Shown: positions 2,279 through 23,715 of the stretch, piece after piece
Layout of the letters: each line of letters starts with the position of its first letter
How positions within the stretch are numbered: position 1 is the first letter of the stretch
The notes under the pieces: generated by a model
What the model was told of the DNA's origin: nothing
Databases searched by the model: none
The model's input: only the letters and a program-made list of their open reading frames with translations
Program-made: the position numbers and the translations under genes
DNA from: Limonium bicolor
Taxonomy: Eukaryota > Streptophyta > Magnoliopsida > Caryophyllales > Plumbaginaceae
Assembly (NCBI GenBank): GCA_023374045.1
Contig: CM041776.1
Coordinates: 139,627,296-139,691,295, forward strand
Reading direction: 5' to 3'
Length of the DNA stretch: 64,000 bases

Positions 2279-2283
2279 GTTTT
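2279..2283. repeat. Target-site duplication GTTTT, left copy
   Basis: GTTTT directly precedes the TG of the 5' LTR at 2284. The same five bases follow the CA of the 3' LTR at 16419-16423. A five-base duplication is normal for Ty3/gypsy integration and shows that the two LTRs belong to one insertion. Confidence 0.93.
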
Positions 2284-2603
2284 TGAAATACCCCGTAATT
2301 AAAAATAGTGATTAATTAGGCTAATAAGTAATTTAGAAGCTTAATTAAGTGTAAATAATTATTAGGGAACAAATTCCGAAGAAAACGGACCTTTAAAACG
2401 GTTTAAAAACATTACCGAACCTTAAAGCGCGTTTTTCGAGGTAACCGGGAAAACGTGTCTTTAAGCGGGTCAAATAGACTCGTAACAGTTTTGGTCAACT
2501 AAATATTCATTAATAAATATTAGTGAAGCTGTAGGACCAATAAAAATCAATAAAACGAGAGATTAGTAAAAACTGTCAAAAACGGGAAGTTGTGGGGTAG
2601 AAG

Positions 2604-2611
2604 TATAAATA
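2604..2611 (+). promoter_or_regulatory. TATA-like box of the 5' LTR promoter
   Basis: TATAAATA lies about 320 bp inside the LTR, 30-40 bp upstream of a TG-microsatellite and CT-rich leader that resemble plant 5' UTR sequence. The 3' LTR has the equivalent near 12921. Transcription start is inferred, not shown. Confidence 0.55.
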
Positions 2612-4167
2612 ATTGAAACTTATGTGTCCACTTTTAAAATAAAAAGTGAAGATTGTGTGTGTGTGTGTATGCTAGCCGATGGGCTCTTTCCCCCCCCCTC
2701 TCTCACACACTCACTCACTATTTACAAAAGACAAAAATCATAAAAGTAACCCTCACCTCACTTCCTACTCTCTCTCCTCCCTATTCTCTTTTCCCTCACG
2801 TGAACAAGCACCCCACACCCTCTCTTTTCTCCTTTCTTCTTCCCCATGCGATTTCCATGGCTGCTTGAGAGAACCCCCACAAAATACCACTTCTCTCCTT
2901 TGTAACTCTCTCCACACTCTTCCAAAAATTATAAAAACACCACCATTGCAATCCTCTCCTCAAGAGCTACATTTTCATCCTTCCAAAATCCAAAAGCAAG
3001 CATTTTCGATTTTGAGGGTATACCCCATTTGGAGTCTCAACACCACCATTAGAAGGCCCTTGTTCTCCTTGTTCTTCTAAGGTAAAAATCTTCTTGGAAA
3101 CTCCATCTTTTCCTAGCTTTATGGGCAAAACGAAAATCTAGTTAAACTCTTGTTTGCCCCTCTTGTACCCAGCCGATTTTGGCTCCTTTGGAAGGTGGGG
3201 AACCTTGTTCTTGAGCTGCTCCAAGTATTTCATAAACCCTTGGAAGGTAATGAGATTCCTAAACCCTAGAAATTTGATTAGAGCTTATATAATGCTTAGG
3301 GTGAGTTTAGTATTAAAATTGTGAATGTGAATGGGTGGTAGTTTAGATTGTGGAGTGCTGTAACCGTTGAGAAGAGGAGGAAGAAGAAACAAGAAGAGGA
3401 AGAAAATCTAGACGGAAAACAAGGTAAGAATACTCATTGTGTAGCTTGGTAGATATTTGTATATGTAACAGATTTTTAGTAATGAAAATTGGTATTGTAA
3501 AATGATAATGCATTAGTAGTATAATGTGTAAGAGAATATAAGTATTTTGAACCTTTAAAAGATGTGTAAAACTTGTTGAAACCGGATTGGGAATTAGTGT
3601 TTGAGTGCAGGAAGTTTTATGAGTGTTTTAGTATCGGTATTTGGATATGGGAGCTTGTGTATTGATGTTATTGTAACAGGTGAGATAAGTATTGAAATAT
3701 GAACTAAACCATGTGGTGAGTGTATAGAAATACAAGAGAGACTATGGCAAAATTTGCCTAGGATTAGAACACTTAGAGAATTAAACTAGGTGACTAAGGT
3801 GAGTGTGTAACAGATTTTGATTTAAATAAATAGTGGGTAAGTTGAGAGAGATAGATAATGGATTCTAATGTATTAGAGGTGTTAGAAATGACATTAGAAG
3901 AGGGAGTTGTAGATGGAGAGAGTTAGACTAAAATCTGTAGCAAAACACAACTAGGAAACAACTAGTGAGAGTGTTGGGTTGAAACTTGGAAAATTATGTG
4001 AGTGAATGAGTATAGGATGGTGTAAGGAGTTAATGAATGAACTAAGGTGTATTAGGAGGTTTAATTATTGTTAAATCATGTAGGAACTTGGGAAAATGAT
4101 TAGGAAAAGATTGGATGGGAATTGAGAAGGATTTGGAGTTCAAAAGGAGCAATTAAAAATAAGTACT

Positions 4168-4503
4168 GGGCTGGACCGACCCTAGGGCCGACCCTAGCAG
4201 GGTCGGTCGACCCGAAAATCTGTAACCTCAGAAGCTTCTGCATCCGACCGACCCAGTGGGCCGACCCTGCCTGGGTCGGTCGAGTGGGAAATTTTGGTCG
4301 GAAATGTTTCTGCATCCGACCGACCCAGGGGACCGACCCTGCCTGGGTCGGTCGAGTAGAAATTGCGAGTTGGATATCTTCTGCAACGGACCGACCCAAT
4401 GGACCGACCCTGGCTGGGTCGGTCGAACTTGAAAATTCTGTAATCGAAGTCTCTGCACCCGACCGACCCATGGGTCCGACCCAGGGAGGGTCGGTCGGGT
4501 CAA
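4168..4503 (+). repeat. GC-rich tandem palindrome cassette in the 5' LTR
   Basis: Five units of roughly 70-80 bp, each with two CCGACCC-type half sites, then GGGTCGGTCGA. Each can fold into a GC-rich stem. The surroundings are AT-rich. The repeat leaves several frames open on both strands, which explains the long ORFs here; they look compositional rather than coding. The same cassette is at 14460-14803 in the 3' LTR, and different-sequence versions occur in other LTRs of the window. Confidence 0.85.
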
Positions 4504-4521
4504 TCAAAAAAAAAAAAAATA

Positions 4522-4523
<2 letters not shown>

Positions 4524-4560
<37 letters not shown>
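4524..4560 (+). repeat. TA dinucleotide microsatellite
   Basis: A run of TA repeats right after an A-tract at the end of the palindrome cassette. The 3' LTR copy near 14825-14850 is shorter, as expected for a slippage-prone repeat. Confidence 0.85.
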
Positions 4561-4562
<2 letters not shown>

Positions 4563-5616
4563 GTATATACATACATATATATATGTACATGTATGAAAGC
4601 ATGCCAAAGCTAAGTAAGAAAGTAAAACTTAGGTAATGAAAAATGAGTAAGTAAAGTGTAAGTGTAAGAAATATAAGGACATAGTAAGTATGAGTTAAGT
4701 AATGATAGTTAGATTAATCATTTAATCGTATGTATATAATAGGACTTGATTTGTGACACCGGAAGCACGTTTGGAAGTACGTACAACGGTGAACGGTATG
4801 GATTCCTCATGCCCCGGGTGCTATCTTGGTTACTCTGATTTGTGTGTTGTGTGCTAATTGATCACCAAATAAGATAAATGCACGAATCGGAGTTAATATG
4901 CATACTTGTGAATATGTACTGTTGTGTGATGTTGTTTATTTTCTTAATTCTTAGTTTGTATAATTCATGAAATGTTTGGATGAATATGAATGCGTGTATG
5001 TATGTTGTATTGTACCGTGACCGTTAATTATTGTGTTTGGACTTCTAACTTGTTCCTAACAAGCTAACCATCCTAACTTAAAATGGTAATTAAATTGGAA
5101 TGAGTAGAAGTCCGATATAGTTTCGGCCACGCGTGAGGATGCGGAGTCACGAGAGGTTGGCTCCAATTCCTGACTCTTAAACTGGTCCGCGGCCCAAATC
5201 CCTTAAGTGGGTAGCATCCCGGATTAGTGAGTCAAGTAAATCCCGGATGTGGGACGGTGTAGTCCCCAAGGCCGGAGGTCCCGACGACTTGACTTGAGTA
5301 TAAGTAAGTAAGTAAGAATGAGCAAGTAAAGTAATTGAAAGTAAGTGATTGTAAGTAAGAAGAAGTAAGTAATGAGTAAAAGAGTAAAGCATTCCGATTA
5401 ACCCGGATGCTCAATTTGGCTAACCTTGTGAAGGTAAGTAAGTTGTGTGCTACTACATTGTTGCCTTGAATTATGTAATGGATTGTATAGCATGTATATT
5501 GTATGAAGAGCATGTATGTATGAAATAAATGAACTGCATGTTTAGTGGACGTCAAATAGTCGGCGTGCCCTAGCTAGCACGCGGTATATGCGGAGTCCAT
5601 ATGCAGCGTTTGCTGA

Positions 5617-5648
5617 GCCCCTTGGGGCACCATTTTTACTACACGCAG
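5617..5648 (+). promoter_or_regulatory. Hairpin plus 3' splice-site-like module in the 5' LTR
   Basis: GCCCC-TT-GGGGC (5617-5628), then a T-rich stretch and ACACGCAG ending at 5648. Good donor-like sites lie upstream (GAAG|GTAAGT with the intron starting at 5434; ACAAG|GTAAGA at 3424). The arrangement GCTGA, C-run, G-run, pyrimidine tract, CAG recurs 300-480 bp before the LTR end in other LTRs here. Use as a splice acceptor is inferred. Confidence 0.5.
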
Positions 5649-6131
5649 GTACTCGAGATTGATGAAGATGCTGAGGACATAGCTCTATTTCTTTATCTTC
5701 TTTTTGATGTAAACACTGAACTTATGATGGGTGTACTAAGTAGTACAGGGCTACAGTTTTTGATTAGCCGGTGTACCATGGGGTACACCTTTTTGGATAT
5801 TGGGAAAGGAGCATTGGTATAGATGAGTAGCTTTAGAAACTCATTCTTTTGGTAAGCTTGAAAGATTGTAACTGAATATACTTTAAATACTCGGTGATCC
5901 AGGATGTAAGTATTTGGCACATGTTATTTTGGTAAGTAATTTAGTAGCTCGGTACGTTATGTTCATCAGACCGTGACTGTAAGTATTAGTAGCCTAGCTA
6001 GCCGTATGGGCGGTTAGCGGCATTGTTTCACCCGCCGTAGTAAGTATGTATTAATTCCGCTGCGAACTCGTAGGATTAATAGGACGATTAGACGGTAAGC
6101 ATAGGATTAGCGGTTGGGGTGTTACAAAAAG

Positions 6132-6159
6132 TGGTATCAGAGCGTAGTAACGCTCTGAT
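6132..6159 (+). promoter_or_regulatory. tRNA-iMet primer binding site embedded in a hairpin
   Basis: TGGTATCAGAGC (6132-6143) is the standard plant initiator-tRNA-Met primer site, five bases after the LTR end. Its 3' half forms the left arm of a perfect 10-bp stem: ATCAGAGCGT (6136-6145) pairs with ACGCTCTGAT (6150-6159) across a four-base loop. The dead-pol element has the same arrangement at 28971-28992. Confidence 0.92.
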
Positions 6160-6202
6160 GTCCTTAGTACCGAGCATAGGGGATTACCGAGTTAGGATTC
6201 AA

Positions 6203-6282
6203 CCGTCTTAAGACGGATACCTAGAAACCTAACTAGGAACTACCGTTGTTAACGACGGATACCCTTAACGTTCTTATGAACG
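6203..6282 (+). promoter_or_regulatory. Series of small hairpins in the gag leader
   Basis: Between the primer site and gag lie CCGTCTTAAGACGG (6203-6216), CCTAG/CTAGG arms (6220-6237), CCGTTGTTAACGACGG (6243-6258) and CGTTC/GAACG arms (6269-6282). This is where retroelements often keep dimerisation or packaging signals; that role is inferred from position only. Confidence 0.5.
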
Positions 6283-7017
6283 ATACCTTGCTTAAATTCC
6301 AAGACCTTTGAGTCCTATCTTGCAAGCCTAATGTAACTGTTAAACATTCAGATGTCAGGACGAGGCCGAGGCCGACCTAGAGGCGAAGCCTCAGATGGAA
6401 CCGGCGCACAGACGATAGCTGAAATCGTCGCCGCCACGGTAGCACAGATGCTACCACAAGTTATACAAGCTGTACAACAATCCCAACAAAACCAACAAAC
6501 TCAAACGGGGCCAATCCCTCCCCCTCCACCCAGAGAAGCTAATTGGGTGAAAGCTGTAGCGGAACTCCGCCCTCCTTGCTTTCGGGGCGAGAGTGATCCG
6601 GCTAAGCTAGAAGCATACATCTCCGAGATGGAGACTGCTTTTGAAACACTCGAAGCTCCTGCTGGAGTTCGAGTCAGAGTAGCCGCCTACTACTTGAAGG
6701 ATGCGGCCATGGATTGGTGGAAACTGGTGAAGCACGAGCATGTCAGCGACCCCACCTTCGATTGGGATTCCTTCGCATCTCTCCTCCGATCCAAGTACTA
6801 TCTGGAGCATGTAAAAACGAAGAAAAGGCTAGAGCTGGACGCCTTAAAGATGACAGACAAGATGTCTGTGGATGAGTACTACCGCACCTTCACCTCCATT
6901 CTCCGTCTCCTCCCTGACCTTGGATACACCGGCCAGGTGTTGGTCGATCGCTTCTATGGCGGTCTGAGCCATCGCCTTCGGTACGGTATGGGCTACACCA
7001 GATTTACCTCCCTTCAG

Positions 7018-7134
7018 GTAAATAAACGGTTAACCCCTAGTATCATTTCAATTCCTTAAGTTCCTTGAAATCTTTGAATCTTTTCCCTTATCTTTTCCTT
7101 AAGCGAGAATCCCGGCTAATACCTGAAATTTCAG
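7018..7134 (+). other. Apparent intron 1 of gag
   Basis: 117 bp, CTTCAG|GTAAATAA ... ATTTCAG|GAGTG. It is T/A-rich with in-frame stops, between two parts of gag that join in phase 0. No transcript evidence. Confidence 0.7.
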
Positions 7135-7408
7135 GAGTGTTATCACGCGGCTTCTCGCGTTGAGATCACTTGCCAACTGAGGGATGAAGAAACCGCGCTG
7201 AAGCGCAAGGCCAATAACAAAAATACCAGCACTGAGGAGCAGAACCAGGGTAAAAGCTGGAAGAAGAAGAAAGGGAACTTCTTTTCTCAGAAGAAGTCCC
7301 CAAGTGAGAGCGGTGCCCATGCTGAGCAGGGCAAACCAGCTGAGATCCTTCAGCTTGGTTATTCTGCACCAGTGGCAGCTAAGCCACTGAGATCACACCC
7401 TCCTAAGG

Positions 7409-7491
7409 GTAAATTCTACTTCCAATTTGTATTCGTATAAGTATCATTTCTAGTATACCCACGCACACATGTGCTAACCCTCTAACCTCAG
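7409..7491 (+). other. Apparent intron 2 of gag
   Basis: 83 bp, CCTAAGG|GTAAATTC ... TAACCTCAG|GTTCT. Its removal joins the lysine-rich gag segment to the zinc-knuckle exon with the split codon intact (phase 1). A stop interrupts the unspliced frame. Confidence 0.68.
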
Positions 7492-8094
7492 GTTCTACTA
7501 GCTCCGGAGCCGCCAAAACCTTCTCCGACGGCCGCACCTATGTGTGCAGAAAGTGCAACCAGGACCACCCTGGTAAGGATTGCTACGGGAGGGAGATCAA
7601 ATGCTACAACTGCCAGAAGCTGGGACACAGCATTAACAGTGCCCGGAGAGTGGGAAGCAGAAGGGAAACTTTCAAAACTATAAGCAGAGAGAGGGCAAGG
7701 AGGTGGCATCTGGCGATGCACCGGCCCAGCAGGCACCTCAGGGACAGGGATCCCGGGGTCCTCAGAGAGGCGCACCCCAGAGGCAGCCAGTTCGCATGTG
7801 ATTGACCGCGATGGGCCCGGTTCGAAATCCGGCCAAGGTAATCACCTAAACCTTTAATCCTTGAAATAGCATGCCTAGTAGTAGAGTAACTGTATGATGA
7901 ATGCATGAGTAAATAAATGAAGTGTATACTAAGCATGAATGAAGTAGTTGAAACTAGTACTCACCGTAGATGAAATTTGTAACCATAGGAAACTTTAGTA
8001 TCTGTTACCCAATACCGGTAACCTTGAATCAAGAAGAGATCGACATGACCAACCACGACTACACCAACAACAGTGTCAGGTCATCCGCCCAGGT

Positions 8095-8727
8095 ATGATC
8101 TTATTAAGGGGATACCTGACACCCGAAGCGCAAATCTCAATTATTCGACGATGCAACGAGCTAGGAAACGGGTCAAGGTGGATTTTACACACCCGAATTC
8201 CCCGGTGGAGCGAAGATGAAGCTGAAGATGATGTGCTTGGGAAAGGACTGGAATCCTTATACCAAACATACCAGGAGACACGACAAACAAGATGGGGCGA
8301 CACCACCGACAATACCACCAGAGTTTCAGACCCTCATCACTCAAGCAGTAGAACTTGCACACAATGTGAACCTGAACCAATCCCCGCACTTGAAGCGGAC
8401 CTTTGTATCGTCAACTTCTACGAGAAAGAAGGACGACTTGGGTTACACCAAGACAAGGACGAGACAGCGGAATCTCTTGAACAAGGAGTGCCCGTAGTGT
8501 CTTGGTCCATTGGTGATGACGCCGTATTCCTGTATAGCGAGCAGAAGCGTGTGGACCTCGCAGAGAAATTGGTATTGAGATCAGGAGATGTCCTCATCAT
8601 GGGTGGAAACTCACGGATGCTGTATCACGGGATCAACAAGATCAAGTTGAATACGGCACCGCCGGCAATAATCAATGCCACACACATGAAACCAGGACGC
8701 CTGAACCTTACCTTTAGAAAGTATTAA
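8095..8727 (+). CDS. AlkB-family Fe(II)/2-oxoglutarate dioxygenase carried by the retrotransposon
   Basis: 210-codon ORF. AlkB proteins oxidatively remove alkyl or methyl groups from nucleic-acid bases. The core is clear: LCIVNFYEKEGRLGLHQDKDE holds the HxD metal ligands (H118, D120); VPVVSWSIGDDAVFLY follows; LRSGDVLIMGG and YHGI give the distal metal His (H178); RLNLTFR near the C-terminus gives the 2-oxoglutarate-binding arginines (R202, R208). The N-terminus (residues 1-24) also fits. Residues about 25-95 do not: the adjacent frame there carries family-like MMCLGKDWNP, so two compensating one-base shifts (near 8163-8168 and 8365-8385) leave the ORF open but scramble the substrate-lid region. 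It looks closest to the plant nuclear AlkB group with an HQDKDE core, suggesting capture of a spliced host mRNA. It lies between gag and protease in the same orientation. The true start may be upstream by splicing; 7999-8094 is open in frame. Confidence 0.92.
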   Translation: MILLRGYLTPEAQISIIRRCNELGNGSRWILHTRIPRWSEDEAEDDVLGKGLESLYQTYQETRQTRWGDTTDNTTRVSDPHHSSSRTCTQCEPEPIPALEADLCIVNFYEKEGRLGLHQDKDETAESLEQGVPVVSWSIGDDAVFLYSEQKRVDLAEKLVLRSGDVLIMGGNSRMLYHGINKIKLNTAPPAIINATHMKPGRLNLTFRKY

Positions 8728-8796
8728 ATTCCTAGTATCATGTAATCCATTAGTAACGTGTATTAGAGACACGACATGTATGATGGTTGGTTTATC

Positions 8797-8802
8797 AATA
8801 AA
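8797..8802 (+). terminator. Possible poly(A) signal after the AlkB ORF
   Basis: AATAAA lies 70 bp past the AlkB stop and before pol. It could be a relic of the captured mRNA's 3' UTR or could end a short gag-AlkB transcript. One hexamer is weak evidence. Confidence 0.3.
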
Positions 8803-8888
8803 GAGCAGTGTTGATTTAATTCCACTTGTGTCCACCATCAATACTTATCCAATTGTGAATCCAATAGGTTGTGGACTCGGTACCGAAG

Positions 8889-9412
8889 GTAACCTGAGCA
8901 TCCTCACCGAAGCACAAGCCGGCAGAAGCGGCACCATTCTAACGGGAACCTTCCCAGTAAATGGCATTGATGCCAATGTTATTCGACTCCGGCGCCTCTC
9001 ACACTTTCGTATCACCATCCTTTGTGAAGAGGTTGAAGCTAGATGCGGATGAGCTACCGAACTTCATGGTTACTCTCCCATCGAAGGAGCGAGTAAAGTG
9101 CACCAAATACTATCAATCAGCCACAATCCAAATCAAAGGCGAATCGTTTCCCTTTCCTTCATCGAATTCAACGGATTGGGATTCGACGTAATCATTGGGA
9201 TGAATTGGTTGGAGCGGCACAAGGGTAGAATCCTCTGCGCCGAGCATCGTTTGCTGCTCAAGAGTCCTTCTGGGGTTACCGTATCTTACCGCCAGAGACC
9301 GAGAGAGCCTTCGACCACACTTATATCTGCCATGGCTATGTACCGGGAGCTCAGAAAGGGCCAAGAAGTATTGTTATGTACAAGACCTGGAGAGAGATCC
9401 AGAGTTCAGTGA
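8889..9412 (+). pseudogene. pol: Retropepsin-like aspartic protease, frame-broken
   Basis: Cleaves the gag-pol polyprotein. The lead-in GNLSILTEAQAGRSG is open from 8780. The active site LFDSGASHTFV (DSG at 8985-8993) is one frame over, with a one-base break just before it near 8980. A second break near 9155 shifts to the frame with FDVIIGMNWLERHKGRI, the usual end of plant Ty3 proteases. Three frames are therefore needed to read it. Key residues are intact. It follows the AlkB block and runs into the RT lead-in. Confidence 0.85.
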
Positions 9413-10254
9413 GATGTACCTATTGTATCTGAGTATCCTGATGTATTCCCTAAGGAGCTACCCGGCATGCCACCACCGAGAGCAGTGGAATTTGAGATTG
9501 ATCTTGCCAGGTACCGGTCCCATTGCTAGGGCACCGTACCGCATGGCACCTGCTGAAATGACCGAATTGAAAGAGCAGTTGAGAAGACTTACTTAGACAA
9601 AGGGTTTATACGCCCGAGCGTATCACCCTGGGGAGCACCGGTTCTCTTCGTGAAGAAGAAGGACGGTAGCCTCCGGCTATGCATTGACTACCGCGAGCTG
9701 AATGCGGTCACAGTCAAAAATAAATACCCACTACCACGTATGATGATCTATTCGACCAGTTGAAAGGAGCCTCAGTCTTCTCCAAGATCGACCTCCGTTC
9801 AGGGTACCATCAGATTGCAATCAAAGAGCAAGACATTGAGAAAACGGCATTCCGTACCAGATATGGCCACTACGAATTCACAGTGATGCCATTCGGTTTG
9901 TCAAACGCACCGGCAAAATTCATGGACCTCATGAACCGTTTATTCAGTGAGCAGTTGGACACTTCGGTTGTGGTCTTCATCGACGACATCCTTGTATATT
10001 CTAAATCACCAGAGGAACATGAAATCCACTTGAGGAAAGTGCTTGAGACACTGCGCGAGAACCAGCTTTATGCGAAGTTCTCCAAATGCGAGTTTTGGCT
10101 TGATCAGGTATCATTCCTTGGACATGTCATCTCGAGCGCAGGTATCTCAGTTGACCCTTCTAAGATAGAAGCTGTACGATCATGGCCTAGACCCAAGACT
10201 GTTACCGACATTAGGAGCTTTCTTGGTCTAGCCGGTTACTACCGGAGATTGTAA
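9413..10254 (+). pseudogene. pol: Reverse transcriptase domain, frame-broken
   Basis: Copies the element RNA into DNA. The lead-in near 9410-9500 reads as the YPDVFP...LPGMPP segment common to plant Ty3 pol. [17 protein letters not shown] follows at 9535-9580 in another frame, and [21 protein letters not shown] at 9630-9690. The main block (9760-10254, continuous) has [11 protein letters not shown], the [11 protein letters not shown] and PFGLSNAP motifs, and the catalytic FIDDILVYS with its Asp pair at about 9982-9987. It then runs to [15 protein letters not shown] and [10 protein letters not shown]. Breaks occur near 9500, 9590, 9735 and 10250, all small indels. The catalytic residues are present. 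Confidence 0.92.
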
Positions 10255-10790
10255 GGGACTTCTCGAAAGTCGCCAAGCCCATGACTACATTGATGAAGAA
10301 AGATGCACCGTTTGTATGGACAGACGAGTGCGAGCTATCATTTCAGAAGCTGAAAGACTCATTGACCTCAGCGCCCGTCCTTACTCTTCCAGAGGGCACA
10401 GAGGGATTTGAGGTATACTGTGATGCATCAGGCAAAGGAATGGGATGCGTACTCATGCAGCATGGCAAGGTTGTTGCTTATGCCTCCCGCCAGAAAAACA
10501 TGAGGAGAATTACCCGACTCACGACTTAGAGTTAGGAGCCATTGTCTTCGCCTTGAAGATATGGCGACACTATCTCTATGGGGTAAGCATCACCATCTAC
10601 TCCGATCATAAAGCTTACATACGTATTCACTCAGAAAGAACTCAACTTGAGACAAAGAAGATGGATGGAGTTTCTTCAGACTATGACATCAACTTACAGT
10701 ATAAGGAAGGGAAGGCTAATGTGGTAGCCGACGCCCTGAGCCGTCGAGCACACTCGCTCCATTCGCTACTCGCTTCTTCTAGCTTGGTTG
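10255..10790 (+). pseudogene. pol: RNase H domain, frame-broken
   Basis: Degrades the RNA strand during reverse transcription. The connection segment (DECELSFQKLKDSLTSAPVL) and YCDASGKGMGCVLMQ, with the first catalytic Asp, are in the 10281-10529 frame. THDLELGAIVFALKIWRHYL, with the catalytic Glu, and the YSDHK Asp follow in the frame of 10445-11110. A second break pair around 10615-10665 garbles the segment after DHK. The frame then recovers at YDINLQYKEGKANVVADALSRR, the standard end of the domain. Confidence 0.88.
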
Positions 10791-12263
10791 ACGAGGTGCG
10801 AGACGCTCAGTTGAGCGACCCTTACCTAACCGAAATCAGACACAAGATCGAGAATGGTACATTTGAGAAGAAAAAGTATGATTTTAAGCTACATGAAGAT
10901 GGTTTGATTCGGTTGAATGGCAGGCTATGCGTCCCCCGAAGCAATGCTGAGCTAAGGGATCGCATCCTGCGAGAGTCACATAGTTCTACATTATCAGTCC
11001 ATCCGGGAGCCTCCAAGATGTACAAAGACATGAAGAGGTACTTCTGGTGGTCTGGAATGAAGTCAGATGTGACAGAATTCGTATTGAGATGCTTACATGC
11101 CAGAAGGTAAAATTTGAACACCGTAGACCGGGCGGAATGGTACAATCATGCCAATTCCGGAGTGGAAATTTCATGATATCTCCATGGATTTTGTTGTAGG
11201 ACTCCCACCTGCTAGGGGAGGACTCAACATGATCTGGGTTGTAGTAGATCGCCTTACCAAGGTTGCCAGATTCATACCGATGAAGGACACCTGGAAGGTA
11301 GTAAAGCTAGCTGAGCTTTTTGATAAGGAGATTATCAGACACCACGGAGTCCCTAAGACCATAGTATCTGACCGCGACACCAGATTTCTTTCGAGATACT
11401 GGAGAGCTACAAGGGAAGCGTTGGGTACAGAACTGAAGTTGAGTACCGCCTTCCATCCTCAGACCGACGGTCAGACAGAAAGGACCATCCAGACACTGGA
11501 GGACATGCTTCGGGCATGTGCCTTGGACTTTCAGGGGAGTTGGTTAGATAAGCTTCATCTTATCGAGTTCTCGTATAATAATAGTTATCACGCCTCGATT
11601 AAGATGTCGCCTTTCCAAGCTCTATACGGTAGACCTTGCCGTACACCCTTGTGTTGGGATGAGTCAAGTGAAGCGGTCATAATAGGACCGGAGTACCTTG
11701 AGCAAGTGCAAGCCGAAGTGCAACAAATCCGAGCTAACATGAAGGCAGCCCAAGATAGACAGAAATCCTATGCGGATGTGAGACGACGCGACCTTGAGTT
11801 CGCCGTGGGCGACCAAGTGTTCTTGCGAGTTTCACCTATGAAGGGTGTCTTCAGATTTGGTCAGAAGGGCAAGCTAAGCCCAAAGTTTGTAGGGCCGTAC
11901 ACTATCACCGAAAGAGTTGGTTCAGTAGCCTACAGGTTAGCACTACCTGAGGACTTGGGACGTGTCCATGATGTATTTCATGTGTCACAACTCAAGAAGT
12001 ATATGGCTGATCCTTCTCATGTGTTGGAGCCCGAGAGACTATCCATTGAGCCAAACATGAGATATGTCGAAACCCCAGTGAGAATCCTTGATAGGAAGAC
12101 CAGAGACACTCGCCATAAGTCTATACGAATGGTGAAGGTCCTATGGTCTAACCATGATGTCGAAGAAGCGACATGGGAGTTGGAAGATGCCATGAAGGCT
12201 AAATACCCAGTTATTCATAGACTAGAGTCTAGTGTATACGGGTACGGGTCGTACCCCTTTTAA
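10791..12263 (+). pseudogene. pol: Integrase with chromodomain-like C-terminus, one frame break
   Basis: Inserts the cDNA. The zinc-binding domain (HPGASKMYKDMKRYFWW, ending at Cys near 11095) is split from the core by a one-base break near 11098 that displaces the second Cys of its CxxC pair. The core (11148-12263, 371 codons open) has D in SMDFV, D in SDRDTRF and E in QTERTIQ, with spacings of 60 and 35 residues, a complete DDE triad. The GPY module (KFVGPYTITERVG) and a tail with VKVLWSNHDVEEATWE follow, resembling the group II chromodomain that guides chromoviruses to heterochromatin. The stop TAA at 12261 overlaps a polypurine tract. Apart from the break this is the best-kept part of pol. 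Confidence 0.94.
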
Positions 12264-12273
12264 GGGGGGTAGA
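12262..12273 (+). promoter_or_regulatory. Second polypurine tract overlapping the pol stop
   Basis: AAGGGGGGTAGA, identical in core to the tract beside the 3' LTR. It begins inside the pol stop codon. The same duplicated arrangement is seen after pol or pol relics in four other elements of this window. Confidence 0.7.
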
Positions 12274-12598
12274 ACCCTTTGCTTTAGCATTGCTTCGGGG
12301 TAAGCATTGCATTTTGTATGGCACATGTAGTGCAAGTGAATGTATGGATGTGTATGTATGTGTAATGTGTATGAATGATGTGTATTGTGATGGTAATGGT
12401 GTATTTGTATTGTATGGTATGAATGGAATGATGGATTGTGTATGTGAATTGTGATTGTGTATGTTGAATGTGTATGCTTGCAATGTGAATGAAGTAAACA
12501 CCTCATAGGTGTAGTAAGACATTATGGACAATTGGTTTGCATAATGAGTAGAATTATAAAACTATTAACCTTGAGCAACTTTGAGGGCAAAGTTTCTT
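12274..12598 (+). other. TG-rich spacer between pol and the 3' LTR
   Basis: Low-complexity TGTATG/GAATG-type sequence (12300-12500) followed by ordinary AT-rich sequence. ORFs on the minus strand arise from this composition. No gene seen. Confidence 0.75.
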
Positions 12599-12610
12599 AA
12601 GGGGGGTAGA
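12599..12610 (+). promoter_or_regulatory. Polypurine tract for plus-strand priming
   Basis: AAGGGGGGTAGA followed by one T and then the 3' LTR at 12612; standard position. Confidence 0.9.
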
Positions 12611-12611
12611 T

Positions 12612-15600
12612 TGAAATACCCCGTAATTAAAAATAGTGATTAATTAGGCTAATAAGTAATTTAGAAGCTTAATTAAGTGTAAATAATTATAGGGAACAAA
12701 TCCCGAAGAAAACGGACCTTTAAAACGGTTTAAAAACATTACCGAACCTTAAAGCGTTTTTCGAGGTAACCGGGAAAACGTGTCTTTAAGCGGGTCAAAT
12801 AGACTCGTAACAGTTTTGGTCAACTAAATATCATTAATAAATATTAGTGAAGCTTTACCAATAAAATCAATAAAACGGAGATTAGTAAAAACTGTCAAAA
12901 ACGGAAGTTGTGGGTAGAGTATAAATAATAAACTTATGTGTCCACTTTTAAAATAAAAAGTGAAATTGTGTGTGTGTGTGTGCTAGCCGATGGGCCCCCC
13001 CCCCCTCTCTCACACACTCCTCACTATTTACAAAAACAAAAATCAATAAAATAACCCTCACCTCACTTCCTCTCTCTCTCCTCCTATTCCTTTCCCTCAC
13101 GTGAACAAGCCCCCACCCCTCTTTTCTCCTTTCTTCTTCCCCATGCGATTTCCATGGCTGCTGAGAACCCCACAAACCACTTCTCTCCTTTGTAACTCTC
13201 TCCACACTCTTCCAAAAATTATAAAACCACCATTGTAATCCTCTCCTCAAGAGCTACATTTTCATCTTTCCAAAATCCAAAACAAGCATTTTCGATTTTG
13301 AGGGTATTCCCCATTTGAAGCTTCAACACCACCATTAGAAGGCCCTTGTTCTCCTTGTTCTTCTAAGGTAAAAATCTTCTTGAAAACTCCATCTTTTCCT
13401 AGCTTTATGGGCAAAACGAAAATCTAGTTAAACTCTTGTTTGCCCCTCTTGTACCCAGCCGATTTTGGCTCCTTTGGAAGGTGGGGAACCTTGTTCTTGA
13501 GCTGCTCCAAGTATTTCATAAACCCTTGGAAGGTAATGAGATTCCTAAACCCTAGAAATTTGATTAGAGCTTATATAATGCTTAGGGTGAGTTTAGTATT
13601 AAATTGTGAATGTGAATGGGTGGTAGTTTAGATTGTGGAGTGCTGTAACCGTTGAGAAGAGGAGGAAGAAGAAACAAGAAGAGGAAGAAAATCTAGAAGG
13701 AAAACAAGGTAAGAATACTCATTGTGTAGCTTGGTAGATATTTGTATATGTAACAGATTTTTAGTAATGAAAATTGGTATTGTAAAATGATAATGCATTA
13801 GTAGTATAATGTGTAAGAGAATATAAGTATTTTGAAGCTTTAAAAGATGTGTAAAACTTGTTGAAACCGATTGGGAATTAGTGTTTGAGTGCAGGAATTT
13901 TATGAGTGTTTTAGTATCGGTATTTGGATATGGGAGCTTGTGTATTGATGTTATTGTAACAGGTGAGATAAGTATTGAAATATGAACTAAACCATGTGGT
14001 GAGTGTATAGAAATACAAGAGAGACTATGGCAAAATTTGCCTAGGATTAGAACACTTAGAGAATTAAACTAGGTGACTAAGGTGAGTGTGTAACAGATTT
14101 TGATTTAATAAATAGAGGGTAAGTTGAGAGAGATAGATAATGGATTCTAATGTATTAGAGGTGTTAGAAATGACATTAGAAGAGGGAGTTGTAGATGGAG
14201 AGAGTTAGACTAAAATCTGTAGCAAAACACAACTAGGAAACAACTAGTGAGAGTGTTGGGTTGAAACTTGGAAAATTATGTGAGTGAATGAGTATAGGAT
14301 GGTGTAAGGAGTTAATGAATGAACTAAGGTGTTTAGGAGGTTTAATTATTGTTAAATCATGTAGGAAACTTGGGAAAATGATTAGGAACGATTGGATGGG
14401 AGAGATGGATGGAGTGTCAGGTCTCGGCGTGCTCACTGCCAGCTCGCGTCAATTAAAAATAAGTACTGGGCTGGACCGACCCTAGGGCCGACCCTAGCAG
14501 GGTCGGTCGACCCGAAAATCTGTAACCTCAGAAGCTTCTGCATCCGACCGACCCAGTGGGCCGACCCTGCCTGGGTCGGTCGAGTGGGAAATTTTGGTCG
14601 GAAATGTTTCTGCATCCGACCGACCCAGGGGACCGACCCTGCCTGGGTCGGTCGAGTAGAAATTGCGAGTTGGATATCTTCTGCAACGGACCGACCCAAT
14701 GGACCGACCCTGGCTGGGTCGGTCGAACTTGAAAATTCTGTAATCGAAGTCTCTGCACCCGACCGACCCATGGGTCCGACCCAGGGAGGGTCGGTCGGGT
14801 CAATCAAAAAAAAAAAAAAAATTAAATAATATATATATATATATATATTATATGTAAATACATACATATATATATATGTACATGTATGAAAGCATGCCAA
14901 AGCTAAGTAAGAAAGTAAAACTTAGGTAATGAAAAATGAGTAAGTAAAGTGTAAGTGTAAGAAATATAAGGACATAGTAAGTATGAGTTAAGTAATGATA
15001 GTTAGATTAATCATTTAATCGTATGTATATAATAGGACTTGATTTGTGACACCGGAAGCACGTTTGGAAGTACGTACAACGGTGAACGGTATGGATTCCT
15101 CATGCCCCGGGTGCTATCTTGGTTACTCTGATTTGTGTGTTGTGTGCTAATTGATCACCAAATAAGATAAATGCACGAATCGGAGTTAATATGCATACTT
15201 GTGAATATGTACTGTTGTGTGATGTTGTTTATTTTCTTAATTCTTAGTTTGTATAATTCATGAAATGTTTGGATGAATATGAATGCGTGTATGTATGTTG
15301 TATTGTACCGTGACCGTTAATTATTGTGTTTGGACTTCTAACTTGTTCCTAACAAGCTAACCATCCTAACTTAAAATGGTAATTAAATTGGAATGAGTAG
15401 AAGTCCGATATAGTTTCGGCCACGCGTGAGGATGCGGAGTCACGAGAGGTTGGCTCCAATTCCTGACTCTTAAACTGGTCCGCGGCCCAAATCCCTTAAG
15501 TGGGTAGCATCCCGGATTAGTGAGTCAAGTAAATCCCGGATGTGGGACGGTGTAGTCCCCAAGGCCGGAGGTCCCGACGACTTGACTTGAGTATAAGTAA

Positions 15601-16418
15601 GTAAGTAAGAATGAGCAAGTAAAGTAATTGAAAGTAAGTGATTGTAAGTAAGAAGAAGTAAGTAATGAGTAAAAGAGTAAAGCATTCCGATTAACCCGGA
15701 TGCTCAATTTGGCTAACCTTGTGAAGGTAAGTAAGTTGTGTGCTACTACATTGTTGCCTTGAATTATGTAATGGATTGTATAGCATGTATATTGTATGAA
15801 GAGCATGTATGTATGAAATAAATGAACTGCATGTTTAGTGGACGTCAAATAGTCGCGTGCCCTAGCTAGCACGCGGTATATGCGGAGTCCATATGCAGCG
15901 TTTGCTGAGCCCCTTGGGGCACCATTTTTACTACACGCAGGTACTCGAGATTGATGAAGATGCTGAGGACATAGCTCTATTTCTTTATCTTCTTTTTGAT
16001 GTAAACACTGAACTTATGATGGGTGTACTAAGTAGTACAGGGCTACAGTTTTTGATTAGCCGGTGTACCATGGGGTACACCTTTTTGGATATTGGGAAAG
16101 GAGCATTGGTATAGATGAGTAGCTTTAGAAACTCATTCTTTTGGTAAGCTTGAAAGATTGTAACTGAATATACTTTAAATACTCGGTGATCCAGGATGTA
16201 AGTAGTTGGCACATGTTATTTTGGTAAGTAATTTAGTAGCTCGGTACGTTATGTTCATCAGACCGTGACTGTAAGTATTAGTAGCCTAGCTAGCCGTATG
16301 GGCGGTTAGCGGCATTGTTTCACCCGCCGTAGTAAGTATGTATTAATTCCGCTGCGAACTCGTAGGATTAATAGGACGATTAGACGGTAAGCATAGGATT
16401 AGCGGTTGGGGTGTTACA
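12612..16418 (+). repeat. 3' LTR of the AlkB element
   Basis: Starts TGAAATACCCC, ends GGGGTGTTACA, same modules as the 5' LTR: TATA near 12921, CT-rich leader, palindrome cassette 14460-14803, TA repeat about 14825-14850, hairpin 15909-15920 and CAG acceptor-like site ending 15940. The first ~750 bp lacks many single bases present in the 5' copy. A roughly 50-bp patch at 14402-14450 is unlike the 5' LTR. Confidence 0.95.
14460..14803 (+). repeat. GC-rich tandem palindrome cassette in the 3' LTR
   Basis: Five CCGACCC / GGGTCGG units, base-for-base like 4160-4503. Overlapping ORFs on both strands are a by-product. Confidence 0.85.
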
Positions 16419-16423
16419 GTTTT
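16419..16423. repeat. Target-site duplication GTTTT, right copy
   Basis: Matches 2279-2283; host LTR sequence resumes at 16424. Confidence 0.93.
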
Positions 16424-17192: not shown

Positions 17193-17289
17193 TCACGTAG
17201 GACATATCAACAACCATTCAACCAATTGCACACATGCGCAACAATCAAACACAAATAACCATACACAAAACCAATATAGCATGTGGTGC

Positions 17290-17301
17290 TCTACCCCCCT
17301 G
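17290..17301 (-). promoter_or_regulatory. Second polypurine tract of element A
   Basis: TCTACCCCCCTG on +, directly after the chromodomain coding region; 609 bp from the LTR-adjacent tract. Confidence 0.6.
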
Positions 17302-17897
17302 AAAAAAGGGTTACGCCCACGTACCCCACAAGTATACACAAAACTATAAGAAAGTGACGTATACTTGTCTCGCATGGAGTCCTCTAACGCCCATGTCGCC
17401 TCCTCAGTGTCATGGTTTGACCAAAGAACCTTGACCATCCTAATGGTCTTGTTCCTGGTCTCCCTAGTTTTGGAATCTAAAATGCGTACTGGGGTCTCCT
17501 CATATCTAAGTGTGGGATCTAACTCGAGTGTCTCGGGCTCTAAAATATGTGATGAATGAGGCACAAACTGCTTTAGTTGTGAAATGTTGAACACATTGTG
17601 CACTCTCCGAAGTTCGACAGGTAAATTCTAACCTGTAATCTAATGGGCCCACTCGCTCCGTAATAAGGTACGGTCCTACATGCTTCGGCTAAGCTTGTCT
17701 TTCTGCCCAAATCTAAAAATTCCCTTTATAGGTGAAACTCTAAGGAAGACTCGATCGCCTATTGCAAATTTGAGATCTCTCCTACAGACATTAGCATATA
17801 ACTTCTGTCTGTTTACTAGATACAACTCTCAAGAATCTATACATTCTCTGACATGTTTCATAGTGTATTAGTATGTTTTTATATTTGAATCACGTGT

Positions 17898-17902: not shown

Positions 17903-18199
17903 TGTAACACCCCAACTCGGTCCAATCATGGTTATCGCAAACTTATCATCATATATATAAACTCTGCAGCGGATTTAAATACATTCCAGGACATTGCCAC
18001 GGTCTGACTACAGAATATACCGAACATTAGTACAACAAACCTTAACCAATACATAACCTTCTACAATCCCCTCACATCCTATACATCTCACTAACTCAAA
18101 ATTGCCATACGAGTGTACATGCACAACTCGTAGGCCACACTTAACCCATAACACTTGTACCCCATCTTTCTCTCGTGACGGCCGCCTCCTGACGTTTAC

Positions 18200-18230
18200 C
18201 TGTGTAGTAAAAACAGCCCCCAAAGGGGGT
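18200..18230 (-). promoter_or_regulatory. Hairpin plus 3' splice-site-like module in element B LTR
   Basis: On the minus strand GCTGA is followed by a CCCCC/GGGGG stem, TTTTTACTACACAG and then GTAAACG. Same order as 5617-5648 but different stem sequence. The acceptor-like AG corresponds to + positions 18200-18201. Confidence 0.5.
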
Positions 18231-19547
18231 CAGCACGAATACTGGTACGATCCTCTCATGGCCCCCAAGCTAACGTGGCTACGACGACTAATTGTCGATA
18301 GCATGGGGGTTGATTAGATGCACAACATAATAGTAAATGCTTTAAACAACAATCCAAATATGAACAATCAAAGTTCAAACAATTGAACGACTTAAATGCG
18401 TTCTCCTAATTAGAGAGTTAATTATTTAACTCCTTAAGTTACATTTCCTCTTAATCTTAGTCCATCCTTATCTTACCTCATTCTTAGTCTTATCTTAATC
18501 TTAGAAAATAACCATCCTTTAAAAAGGAATGGATGTAGCTTATCTCAGTCTTATAATGCAAACCATCCTTTAAAAAGGAATGGTTGCAACTTATCTCAAC
18601 CTTATCTTAATCATAGAATACAAACCACTCTTTTAAATAGAAATGATTGTATCTTATCTCAATGTTTATTTTTGTCTTGTAAAAAGCAACCCTGGCCAAT
18701 GAGCTATTAACTCCATTGGTTGAATAAACAACTTTTCTTATAATTTAGGATTTAGGTGATCCTACCGCACCATCTTAATGCCACCTACCTTGGACTGTAT
18801 GCCCAATGTAGCTGAGCCGGCAACCGACCCTAGGCAACAAGTCCAAAGACAAGTCCTTAAGCGGAAGTCGGTTCTGCTATAGATACCGACCCCCTTTTTC
18901 CTTAGCATGCATGAACGGAGTCAGTCCCGGGTTCCTCACTCCCCCCTTAAGTTCTAGTTAGTAGAAGTCTCAAGACAATGTTTGTTGGTTAACCTCTTTC
19001 GGTTTATAACAAACTAAAATTAGGGAGCGTTCCTTAGTCTCACTCAATTCCTTACTAAACGTTGGTTAGTAAGTTCTCACGGTAAGTTGTGTTAGTTTTC
19101 AAACATCACACAACAATTCGATAAACATAATGTTCCGGTTGCATGCTTTATCTTGTTTAGTGGGCACACAAAAACAAATAGCACACAAGCCGAGGGACAC
19201 CTCGTTAGCAAGCAGGTCACAAGAAGAACTGTACCGTTCACCGTTGGTCGTTCGGTTGCTTACTCTCTTTCGGAGTCCAAATTCCAAGTCCTAAAACATT
19301 CATTCAGTTTTAGGTTGTTAATAACTTATCTCAATTCAACTTACTTAACTTACTAAACCCTTAATGATCCCCACCTAACACCTCTTAAGTTTTACAACTT
19401 AATCTTACAAACTTAACCTTAAACTTTTAAGTTTATACTTAACTTAACCCCTTAGGTCTTTATACCTCTAATCATCATTGCCCTCTTAATGGGGTACCAT
19501 TAATACCACTAAACTCTCTTAGGGTTTTTTTTTTTAATCTTAAGGGT

Positions 19548-19732
19548 CGTCCGACCCACCGTCCGACCCAACCAACTGGGTCGGACCATTCCAGAAATTT
19601 TCCGTCTTCTAAGCCTCACCTGTCCGACCCATGTCCGACCCAAGTCCTCTGGGTCGGACCGTTCCAGAACCCTTCACTGGCGTCTAACAGAGGCCGTCCG
19701 ACCCAAACTTGGGTCGGACCCCTGGGTCGGAC
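19548..19732 (+). repeat. GC-rich palindrome cassette in element B left LTR
   Basis: Four GTCCGACCC / GGGTCGGAC palindromic groups in AT-rich surroundings, preceded on the + strand by a T-run. The right LTR counterpart (30639-30822) has point changes that break some pairings. Confidence 0.8.
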
Positions 19733-20173
19733 GCCACCAGAACATGTCCAAAAATTGTTAAATCTTCACCAAACTTCTCCTAAAGCCTCCTAATGTGTTC
19801 TAACATCATTTAGACCCTTTAACCCGCCTTTAATCATCCTCCAAACTCATTAAAATAACCTCCAAAGATCTTCTTAAACATTTACTAAATTCTTGCAAAA
19901 ACTTCCAAACACTTGTTAGTCAATTCCTTATATTTCCAACATGTACATTTTGTCTAAAACTTCAACTAACCAAAGTGTTTCTTTTCAACCCATATAACTC
20001 CTCCTTAACATCATTACATTCCATCTTTGCTTTGTTAAACCTTCCAAGGTCATCTTGCATGTCCATGCACAACTTCTCTTCTTTTCATTTGTTACTCATC
20101 ACTCTTAAACTCTTGAGCTTACTTATACATTTCTTTCCATTACCTTAACACCTTGCCATTGTTCTTCATTTAC

Positions 20174-20176
20174 CTT
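20174..20176. repeat. CTT duplication flanking the CACTA element, left copy
   Basis: CTT here and at 21421-21423. The uninterrupted sister LTR (31258-31265) has a single CTT, giving a clean empty site. Confidence 0.9.
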
Positions 20177-21420
20177 CACTAGTGGAAAAAATGTTTTGAA
20201 CCACGGTTATTTTGCCTATATACCACGGTTAGGAACCGTGGTTTATGCTCGCGTCGTATATTCACAAATTGAGATAAACGACGGTTCATAACCGTGGTTT
20301 AAAGTAAGCGAAAAAACCACGGTTTGTCGAAACCGTCGTTTAAGACCCCTTCTCCCGCAAACATTCATTGACTTTATACCACGGTTGTGAGTCTGAACCG
20401 TGGTATATAGTGCATTATAAATGACGGTTTTACTTAAAACCGTGGTATAAAGTCTATAGAAATCAACAATAAACCACGGTTATATGTAGAACCGTGGTTT
20501 ATAGTCTGCGATTTTTTTCCCAGTTCGCCGGCGCTTTAGCGCCGCCACCTTCGATGTAATTTCTCAACAGAGAGCGCAAACAGAAGAGAATGAACAGGCC
20601 AAAACATGTATGTTACTTGTTTGTGTATTAGGGTTGCTAAATAATGAGTGAAGTTACATTATGTTCCTTGTTCGTCGGTAGGTTGCAAAATTACCGTGAA
20701 AGAGAATGAGAGAGGGCGATTTACAAAAATTACAGAAATTACAGAGGCGCAGAGCATGTCCTTGTTCGCCGGTTAGGTTTGCAAAAATTACAGAGGCGCA
20801 ACATGTGTTCCTTGTTTTCCAGTATGGCGAAGAGCATGCATGTTCGCCGGTGGGTTGAAAAAATTACAGAGGCGCAGAAGAAGAAGAAAAAGAAGAAGGA
20901 GAAGAGTTGTAGAGCATCCTTGTTCGACAGTGTAGGTTGTAAAAGAGTGAGGAGAAAATATATATAATAAGAGAGAGAAAGAGCCGCGTTAATTTTCGGT
21001 GAAAATTTGAATTCCCGCTAAGACTATATACCACGGTTCTAACAAGGAACCGTCATTTAAAGTTTTTTGACCACGACGAAAAACGACGGTTTTGACAAAA
21101 CCGTGGTATATAGAAACCCTATATACGACGGTTCTCCAAGAACCGTGGTATATTCACTTCGGCATGTACTATATACCACGGTTGCCCTGAAAACCGTGGT
21201 ATATTCACTTCGGCATGTACTATATACCACGGTTGCCCTGAAAACCGTGGTATATAACTAACCTATATACGACGGTTCCGGAAAAACCGTGGTATATGCG
21301 CTTTGGTATGCACCTTAAACGACGGTTTCTTTTAAAACCGTGGTTTATAAACTTTAAACCACGGTTTTCCATTTAACCGTGGTTTAAACACCGTCATTAA
21401 AAACATTTTTTCTATTAGTG
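20177..21420. mobile_element. Non-autonomous CACTA DNA transposon with palindromic subterminal arrays
   Basis: 1,244 bp with inverted ends CACTAGTGGAAAAAATG / CACTAATAGAAAAAATG and a 3-bp duplication, as for the CACTA (En/Spm) superfamily. About 20 copies of ACCACGGTT or its complement AACCGTGGT are packed in both subterminal regions (20205-20510 and 21020-21395), mostly as facing pairs 10-25 bp apart that can form hairpins. The middle (20520-21000) has no transposase. It includes a GCCGGCGCTTTAGCGCC-like GC palindrome and tandem TTGTTCGCCGG words. A 62-codon ORF (20779-20967) is low-complexity and not credible. Transposase must come from elsewhere. Confidence 0.92.
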
Positions 21421-23703: not shown

Positions 23704-23715
23704 TCTACCCCCCTT
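23704..23715 (-). promoter_or_regulatory. Polypurine tract of element B
   Basis: TCTACCCCCCTT on +, one base from the 3' LTR end at 23702. Confidence 0.88.

What the first reader, a model, noticed from the sequence alone, without database searches (positions are those of the whole stretch)
8095..8727. AlkB-family demethylase ORF carried by an LTR retrotransposon between gag and pol
The ORF has the complete AlkB core (HxD, distal His, RxNLTFR) and sits in the same orientation between the zinc-knuckle gag and the protease of an element with intact LTR, primer-site and duplication boundaries. AlkB domains are established in several plant RNA viruses (Flexiviridae relatives), where they are thought to counter base methylation, but they are not part of the standard Ty3/gypsy gene set. 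A chromovirus encoding one could remove methyl marks from its own RNA (m6A, m1A) or cDNA to avoid host silencing. Function is inference; the domain and its place are seen.
Basis: partly seen in the sequence, partly recalled or inferred. Interest (0 to 1): 0.95.

Follow-up and report, generated by a model that had tools for sequence, protein, structure and literature searches.

The report
Jumping gene carrying a demethylase gene
A retrotransposon, apparently from a plant, carries between its two core genes a gene of the kind that strips methyl groups from DNA or RNA; a similar case is known from orchids, but with a different enzyme type and a different kind of element.

Summary
The AlkB gene is real (PF13532, E=4e-35) and lies in sense between gag and protease of an LTR element at 2284-16418 (GTTTT duplications, primer site, purine tract, pol; chromodomain below cut-off). 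A gag search (604 candidates scored) gave one hit, on a contig of the same length (26,621 bp) as that of the top-scoring AlkB relative, so the two genes apparently travel together in a second genome. The window AlkB and six relatives from unnamed sources form a supported clade apart from 46 plant-type ALKBH1 rows.

Corrections: the 8095-8727 frame is not one intact gene. About 8166-8360 is read in the wrong frame, and more of the gene lies upstream (from near 7970) in another frame. Patchy deletions in the 3' LTR hint at assembly error rather than decay; undecided. AlkB-carrying Ty3/gypsy elements are published (Phalaenopsis, 2022), so the kind is known. New here: probable chromovirus backbone, rice-ALKBH1-like rather than ALKBH5-like enzyme, and position, perhaps inside a gag-pol intron. 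Function is inferred. The host genome search did not complete, so copy number, host and selection are unknown.

The parts
2279..2283 (.). target-site duplication GTTTT (left)
   Evidence: read directly; matches 16419-16423
2284..6126 (+). 5' LTR (TG...CA)
   Evidence: self-BLAST 97.3% to 12611-16418; ends read
6132..6143 (+). primer binding site TGGTATCAGAGC (complement of plant initiator tRNA-Met 3' end; tRNA identity recalled)
6352..7017 (+). gag exon 1 (capsid; PF03732, PF19259)
   Evidence: 63% identical to P0230 over 158 residues
7018..7134 (+). probable intron 1 of gag; the relative's listed gag frame also ends at this donor
   Evidence: donor rank 2 of 122, acceptor rank 4 of 205 in a rough scan; P0230 ends 3 residues after LQ
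7135..7408 (+). gag exon 2 (no Pfam family above cut-off)
   Evidence: open frame
7409..7491 (+). possible intron 2 of gag (weaker sites)
   Evidence: donor rank 7 of 122, acceptor rank 17 of 205
7492..7837 (+). gag exon 3 with CCHC zinc-knuckle region, interrupted by a frame change near 7641
   Evidence: zf-CCHC E=0.0031, below cut-off
7838..8867 (+). possible gag-pol intron that would contain the AlkB gene
   Evidence: donor rank 4 of 122, acceptor rank 9 of 205 in a rough scan; inference
7970..8727 (+). AlkB (ALKBH1-type) gene, spread over shifted frames; upstream part recalls the PFDIC stretch of plant ALKBH1 proteins
   Evidence: tblastn of P0002 in frames +1 and +2, matches from 7985
8868..9409 (+). 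protease region (LFDSGASHTF), frame-shifted
   Evidence: RVP_2 E=2.7e-5
9724..10254 (+). reverse transcriptase (longest open stretch)
   Evidence: RVT_1 E=8.6e-32
10424..11110 (+). RNase H and integrase zinc-binding domain
   Evidence: RT_RNaseH E=8.4e-13, Integrase_H2C2 E=2.4e-15
11127..12263 (+). integrase core, SH3_Tf2-1 and weak chromodomain
   Evidence: rve E=8.6e-6, SH3_Tf2-1 E=3.4e-26, Chromo 21.1 bits against a cut-off of 25.1
12599..12611 (+). polypurine tract AAGGGGGGTAGAT
12612..16418 (+). 3' LTR, with deletions crowded in its first part
16419..16423 (.). target-site duplication GTTTT (right)

Best explanation
The element is probably a chromovirus whose family carries an accessory gene derived from a plant ALKBH1-type gene and kept between gag and pol. 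Shown: the domain, its place and strand, complete element ends, membership in a distinct AlkB clade with conserved catalytic residues, and a gag and an AlkB relative listed with contigs of equal length. Inferred: one RNA serves as genome and message. With introns spliced out it encodes Gag-Pol; from RNA that keeps the 7838-8867 stretch, or is spliced to just before 7970, the AlkB protein is made separately. The enzyme oxidatively removes methyl groups from single-stranded nucleic acid of the element (genomic RNA, cDNA, or possibly the bound primer tRNA). Marks such as m1A or m3C block base pairing and stop reverse transcriptase (general knowledge), so their removal would favour complete cDNA. 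The copy in this window is probably young, and its broken frames may be assembly errors.
For: PF13532 E=4e-35 and gene order. Clean LTR ends, duplications and primer site. The six best AlkB hits (47-65% identity, unnamed sources) rank above every named plant protein in the listing; over the in-frame C-terminal 116 residues they are 65-75% identical, against at most 63% for the others. Clade of 7 rows with 98/87 support. One gag hit, with contig length 26,621 bp, the contig length also listed for P0001, the top AlkB hit. The relative's gag frame ends at the window's intron-1 donor. Model of P0001: pLDDT 94.9; OsALKBH1 TM 0.93-0.94, E. coli AlkB 0.80-0.83, ALKBH5 0.56-0.57. HQD[KR]DE in 6 of 6 relatives.
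Against: The window copy is frame-shifted in AlkB, gag and pol. Linkage in the second source rests on equal contig length; the contig was not seen. P0002, P0006 and P0004 are listed with contigs of 26,561, 23,054 and 9,956 bp, yet no gag from contigs of those lengths passed the gag search, whose word and length limits may explain this. No second copy could be sought in the host genome. The chromodomain is below Pfam's cut-off. The splice scan used recalled frequencies, its best donor (8093) and best acceptor (8584) lie inside the AlkB gene where they make no sense, and the acceptor at 7969 ranks 34 of 205. No substrate, expression or selection test was possible. That the host is a plant is itself an inference.
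Confidence: 0.58

Rival explanations
1. The AlkB segment is a one-off transduced host gene, caught in a single copy, with no role in the element.
For: Only one AlkB match in the window. Plant LTR elements do transduce host genes, usually in the sense of gag and pol and in one or a few copies (PMC7264820, parts 1-2 of 3 read). The frame is broken here.
Against: Six relatives form one clade with it apart from host genes, and a gag and an AlkB relative share a contig length. A recent one-off capture should be closest to the host's own gene.
Confidence: 0.15
2. A variant of the best explanation: it is an m6A RNA demethylase that frees the element's RNA from stress granules, like the Phalaenopsis ORF2 or AtALKBH9B acting on ONSEN.
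For: Precedent for a Ty3/gypsy AlkB with m6A activity in vitro (PMC9289625) and for ONSEN (passages of the review PMC12786077). Human ALKBH1 is reported to act on m6A too (listing of PMC13052853).
Against: Those two enzymes belong to the ALKBH5 group. No ALKBH5 chain appears among the 24 PDB sequence matches up to E=1, and the fold is nearer OsALKBH1 and AlkB than ALKBH5.
Confidence: 0.2
3. A variant of the best explanation: it removes DNA 6mA from the element's cDNA or integrated copy, as rice ALKBH1 does on single-stranded DNA, keeping the locus open.
For: Closest solved relative is OsALKBH1. Rice ALKBH1 has in-vitro 6mA activity on ssDNA and acts at R-loops (PMC10469495, passages).
Against: No substrate data here. 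In rice, loss of ALKBH1 had a limited effect on overall 6mA.
Confidence: 0.25
4. The co-occurrence is an assembly artefact or a later nested insertion of an AlkB pseudogene.
For: The 3' LTR shows patchy deletions and the window holds a 500-base N gap elsewhere. I did not test for insertion ends around the gene.
Against: Same strand as gag and pol, and the independent gag-AlkB contig-length match.
Confidence: 0.07

Closest known systems
Gypsy_Pa_2799 family, Phalaenopsis (Alvarado-Marchena et al. 2022, PMC9289625)
   Same: Plant Ty3/gypsy LTR element with an added AlkB/2OG-Fe(II) dioxygenase ORF; catalytic residues kept.
   Different: There: Tat lineage next to Ogre, 25.5 kb, Gag-Pol in one ORF, AlkB ALKBH5-like at the C-terminus of a 565-aa ORF2, many copies (8.6% of the assembly). 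Here: weak chromodomain, 14.1 kb, AlkB between gag and pol, ALKBH1-like, about 250 codons, copy number unknown.
Rice ALKBH1 (OsALKBH1; PDB 5xeg, 5xoi)
   Same: Closest solved structure: E=5.7e-44 for the window ORF; 52% identity and TM 0.93 for the P0001 model.
   Different: Host gene with a long N-terminus (the Oryza meyeriana protein P0022 has 366 aa); the element's version is shorter, has a shorter linker before the PIP motif, and falls in a separate clade.
AlkB domains of plant RNA viruses (flexivirus and closterovirus relatives)
   Same: AlkB carried by a parasite of plants.
   Different: Domain within replicase proteins and far more distant (16-20% identity for the named plant-virus rows among the 50 shown).
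Ogre elements
   Same: LTR element with an intron that separates coding regions and is spliced from only part of the transcripts (PMC6317226, passage).
   Different: Non-chromovirus; [quoted passage not shown]

Membership tests
AlkB / 2OG-Fe(II) oxygenase (PF13532) | Profile match above Pfam cut-off | tested here: met
   121-122 bits against a cut-off of 31.2
AlkB / 2OG-Fe(II) oxygenase (PF13532) | HxD...H iron ligands and RxNxTFR 2OG motif | tested here: met
   in the window ORF; HQD[KR]DE in 6 of 6 relatives, GRLNLTFR in 4 of 6 (P0004 ends before it, P0006 ends GRLNLTS)
Intact AlkB gene (this copy) | Whole gene in one open frame | tested here: not met
   the window copy changes frame inside the gene; the relative P0001 is whole over 210 aa and models at pLDDT 94.9
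Plant ALKBH1 type | Closer to plant ALKBH1 than to other AlkB homologs of known structure | tested here: met
   OsALKBH1 E=5.7e-44, E. coli AlkB 4.8e-17, human ALKBH1 4.2e-11
Plant ALKBH1 type | Nested among host ALKBH1 genes | tested here: not met
   separate clade of 7 rows beside 46 plant-type rows; 116 columns only, and a fast rate could also give this
Chromovirus (Ty3/gypsy) | PROT-RT-RH-INT order with integrase last | tested here: met
Chromovirus (Ty3/gypsy) | Chromodomain at the integrase C-terminus | tested here: inconclusive
   Chromo E=2.9e-4, 21.1 bits, below cut-off 25.1
Tekay/Del clade of chromoviruses | Place in an RT tree | not tested
   no reference RT set at hand; long LTRs and primer site fit from recall only
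Phalaenopsis AlkB Gypsy family | Primer site antisense to tRNA-Arg | tested here: not met
   TGGTATCAGAGC, initiator-Met type (tRNA identity recalled)
Phalaenopsis AlkB Gypsy family | Tat/Ogre RT and dual RNase H | not tested
   no RT tree made; no search for a second RNase H
Phalaenopsis AlkB Gypsy family | ALKBH5-like AlkB | tested here: not met
Demethylase | Enzymatic activity | not testable with these tools
   needs a protein assay

The most novel reading that the evidence does not exclude
A second, independent capture of an AlkB enzyme by plant Ty3/gypsy elements: a chromovirus lineage, present in at least two genomes and old or fast enough for its AlkBs to differ by about 25-35% in the catalytic half, keeps an ALKBH1-type demethylase inside an alternatively spliced gag-pol intron and uses it on the nucleic acids of reverse transcription, including perhaps m1A in its initiator tRNA-Met primer.
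Probability: 0.35. Interest if true: 0.8.

Novelty: new variant of a known kind. Interest (0 to 1): 0.6.

Why it matters
If AlkB enzymes of two different classes were captured by two different lineages of plant retrotransposons, base methylation of element RNA or cDNA is likely to be a real and repeated control point. The two classes make different substrate predictions (m6A RNA against m1A, m3C or single-stranded 6mA), so the question of which methyl mark hinders retrotransposons becomes testable with purified proteins. The probable intron arrangement would also show a way for an LTR element to express an accessory enzyme without fusing it to Gag-Pol.

Tried and rejected
Searches that led nowhere. 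Viral contigs with the window AlkB and with P0001: no relative confirmed. With alignment A2: 3 distant loci at 33-37% identity, not used. Genome contigs: 70 loci at 29-47% identity, whose titles name bacteria; I did not inspect their surroundings. NCBIfam gave only AlkB matches far below cut-off. Pfam on gag exon 2 alone found nothing above cut-off. Literature: of 10 answered searches, seven bear on AlkB or added ORFs in LTR elements; the rows listed showed one such case, Phalaenopsis, and none in a chromovirus. The library holds open-licence PMC papers only.

Rejected. Capture from bacteria: the window AlkB falls on the plant side of a 100/100 branch that parts the 8 rows I took as bacterial (P0067 names a bacterium, the others were taken by score or generic name). 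Close kinship with RNA-virus AlkB: 16-20% identity. Chance ORF: E=4e-35. Age from mean LTR divergence (K2P 0.0125): not used, since differences are patchy. The two LTR stretches compared (first 1 kb, 27 substitutions in 958 sites; last 1.3 kb, 1 in 1,342; Fisher p=7e-10) were chosen after seeing the bins; the bins between them hold 19 substitutions and 10 deletions in the 3' LTR.

Rows dropped: one search left P0004 out of the C-terminal set because its match ends early; I put its residues 95-184 back. Of 229 collected AlkB proteins, 60 plus the window went into the tree.

Full report
WHAT IS THERE. The window holds an LTR element from 2284 to 16418. Its LTRs (2284-6126 and 12612-16418) begin TG and end CA and are flanked by the same five bases, GTTTT. 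Five bases after the 5' LTR comes TGGTATCAGAGC, which matches initiator tRNA-Met (tRNA identity recalled), and a purine tract precedes the 3' LTR. Pfam finds gag (PF03732, E=4.9e-15), AlkB (PF13532, E=4.1e-35), protease (RVP_2, 2.7e-5), reverse transcriptase (8.6e-32), RNase H, integrase zinc domain and core, SH3_Tf2-1 (3.4e-26) and a chromodomain that scores below its cut-off (21.1 against 25.1 bits), in that order and on one strand. I call it a probable chromovirus.

THE ORF IS NOT ONE GENE IN ONE FRAME. tblastn with the relative P0002 finds two overlapping frames: +1 over 8068-8724 (E=2e-69) and +2 over 7985-8494 (E=2e-20). Frame +2 holds GGFYTPEF...MMCLGKDWNP, which belongs in the middle, and, upstream, GNFSICYP...MTNHDYTNN, which matches P0002's GPFDICYP...MTGRRDYSN. 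The string PFDI occurs in 51 of 115 collected AlkB proteins of 280 aa or more, host plant genes among them, so the element's gene seems to have brought along part of a host gene's N-terminus; in the window itself the string has changed. The gene therefore begins near 7970 (a candidate ATG) rather than at 8095.

DECAY OR ASSEMBLY ERROR. Gag, protease and RT are frame-shifted too. In the LTR pair, 31 of 34 gaps are deletions in the 3' LTR, 20 of them in the first 1 kb, together with 27 substitutions in 958 sites. The last 1.3 kb has one substitution in 1,342 sites and one deletion (stretches chosen after seeing the bins). Ageing should spread differences over both LTRs and along their length. 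The pattern looks like poorly polished sequence in patches, or exchange with another copy. I cannot decide without reads. The well-preserved LTR end suggests a young insertion.

A FAMILY TRAIT, NOT A ONE-OFF. The AlkB search (5.77 billion proteins, 1,862 candidates scored) gave 1,695 hits, of which the best 120 were listed. The six best (P0001-P0006; 47-65% identity over 59-100% of the query) have no name and come from unnamed sources. Named plant proteins that cover 94% or more of the query have 35-43% identity; shorter named ones reach 54-57% over 56-64%. Part of the gap to the window is due to its out-of-frame middle, so the fairer figure is the in-frame C-terminal 116 residues: 65-75% for the six, at most 63% for the rest. 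In the 20-row alignment the clade shares GDDxxFL, a KR turn and (I/V)NxTH before the last motif (P0003-P0006 being partial), which the other rows lack; a short linker is also seen in P0028. In a tree of 61 rows (the window and 60 of 229 collected proteins, chosen by me; 116 columns, so many forks are weak), the window and the six form one clade (98/87) beside 46 plant-type rows, 44 of them with plant names including a fern. The outer place may reflect age or a fast rate. A profile search with these sequences (only 8,000 candidates scored; 4,155 hits, best 120 listed) added no member that I recognised; host-type proteins follow at 44-57% to P0001.

THE LINK. The window's gag exon 1 was searched in the same database: of 604 candidates one passed, P0230, 63% identical, listed with a contig of 26,621 bp. 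P0001, the top AlkB hit, is also listed with one contig of 26,621 bp from the same source class. Two unrelated contigs of exactly that length are unlikely, so gag and AlkB of this kind very probably lie on one contig in a second genome. I could not see that contig; order and strand there are unknown. Against this: P0002, P0006 and P0004 are listed with contigs of 26,561, 23,054 and 9,956 bp, and no gag with those contig lengths passed. The search only sees proteins of 0.55-1.75 times the query's length that share exact words, so a single hit does not mean that the gag is rare.

INTRONS. Gag exon 1 ends at CAG|GTAAAT (7018), donor rank 2 of 122 in 6340-9000; an acceptor at 7134 ranks 4 of 205. 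P0230 ends three residues past the same LQ, so its frame closes at the same point unless a contig end cuts it. This supports a real intron in gag in two sources. A second (7409-7491) is weaker. A third possible one runs from 7838 (donor rank 4) to 8867 (acceptor rank 9) and would contain the whole AlkB gene. The scan used rough recalled frequencies; its best donor (8093) and acceptor (8584) lie inside the AlkB gene and are surely false, and an acceptor right before the AlkB start (7969) ranks 34. Ogre elements give a precedent for a partly spliced intron between coding regions (PMC6317226, passage).

WHICH ALKB. The nearest solved structure is rice ALKBH1 (5xeg; E=5.7e-44), then E. coli AlkB (4.8e-17), then human ALKBH1 (4.2e-11); no ALKBH5 chain is among 24 matches up to E=1. 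The model of P0001 (31-sequence alignment, pLDDT 94.9) matches OsALKBH1 at TM 0.93-0.94, E. coli AlkB at 0.80-0.83 and ALKBH5 at 0.56-0.57 (50 rows shown). Rice ALKBH1 removes 6mA from single-stranded DNA in vitro (PMC10469495, passages). Human ALKBH1 is reported to act on m1A, m6A, m3C and m5C in RNA and 6mA in DNA (PMC13052853, listing only). The HQDKDE run of E. coli AlkB is kept, as HQD[KR]DE, in 6 of 6 relatives and in 213 of 229 collected proteins. AlkB mutants D135I and E136L have been crystallised with m6A (titles); if, as I recall, these are the last two residues of that run, they mark it as part of substrate choice (inference).

MECHANISM. Most likely the protein works on single-stranded nucleic acid of the element's own cycle and removes methyl groups that block pairing, helping reverse transcription. 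This is inference from class and setting. m1A58 is critical for the stability of initiator tRNA-Met (PMC7475180, listing), and this element appears to be primed by that tRNA, so action on the primer is a bolder possibility, which might equally harm the tRNA.

KNOWN OR NEW. PMC9289625 (abstract to discussion read; not the references or supplement) reports the 2-ODD/AlkB domain only in two Phalaenopsis species among 121 angiosperm genomes screened, in Tat elements next to Ogre, 25.5 kb, ALKBH5-like, with m6A demethylase activity in vitro. The kind is thus known. Differences here are lineage, enzyme class, place and probable expression mode. The rows listed by seven literature searches show no chromovirus case; subscription papers and preprints were not searchable.

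LIMITS. The host genome search did not answer in 10 attempts, so copy number, host identity and selection are open. All functional statements are inference.

Noticed in passing
window 20177-21420: About 1.24 kb with CACTA...TAGTG ends and CTT on both sides, set into an LTR; the other LTR copy (near 31262) shows the uninterrupted site. It looks like a non-autonomous CACTA transposon.
   Followed up: partly
window 17903-33173: A second LTR pair (17903-20176 plus 21421-23335 against 28998-33173, about 97.6%) with a minus-strand primer-site-like sequence just before 28998; no AlkB match there.
   Followed up: partly
window 17196-17627 (-): Piece of another integrase end with a chromodomain-like stretch that by eye is very like the one in the AlkB element.
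   Followed up: no
window 12612-15200: Single-base and short deletions crowded in the first part of the 3' LTR against the 5' LTR, nearly absent from the last 1.3 kb.
   Followed up: yes
window 43662-44155 and 44322-44821: Tandem array with 54-base spacing followed closely by a 500-base N gap.
   Followed up: no
L004-L009: Six AlkB loci titled as acidobacterial or related MAGs match P0001 at E 4e-56 to 9e-47 (41-47% identity), against 3e-28 or weaker for the other 64: plant ALKBH1 may have its nearest bacterial kin there.
   Followed up: no
window 4150-4449 and 14450-14749: Repeat-derived pseudo-frames in both LTRs, rich in proline, glycine and tryptophan-valine-glycine runs.
   Followed up: no
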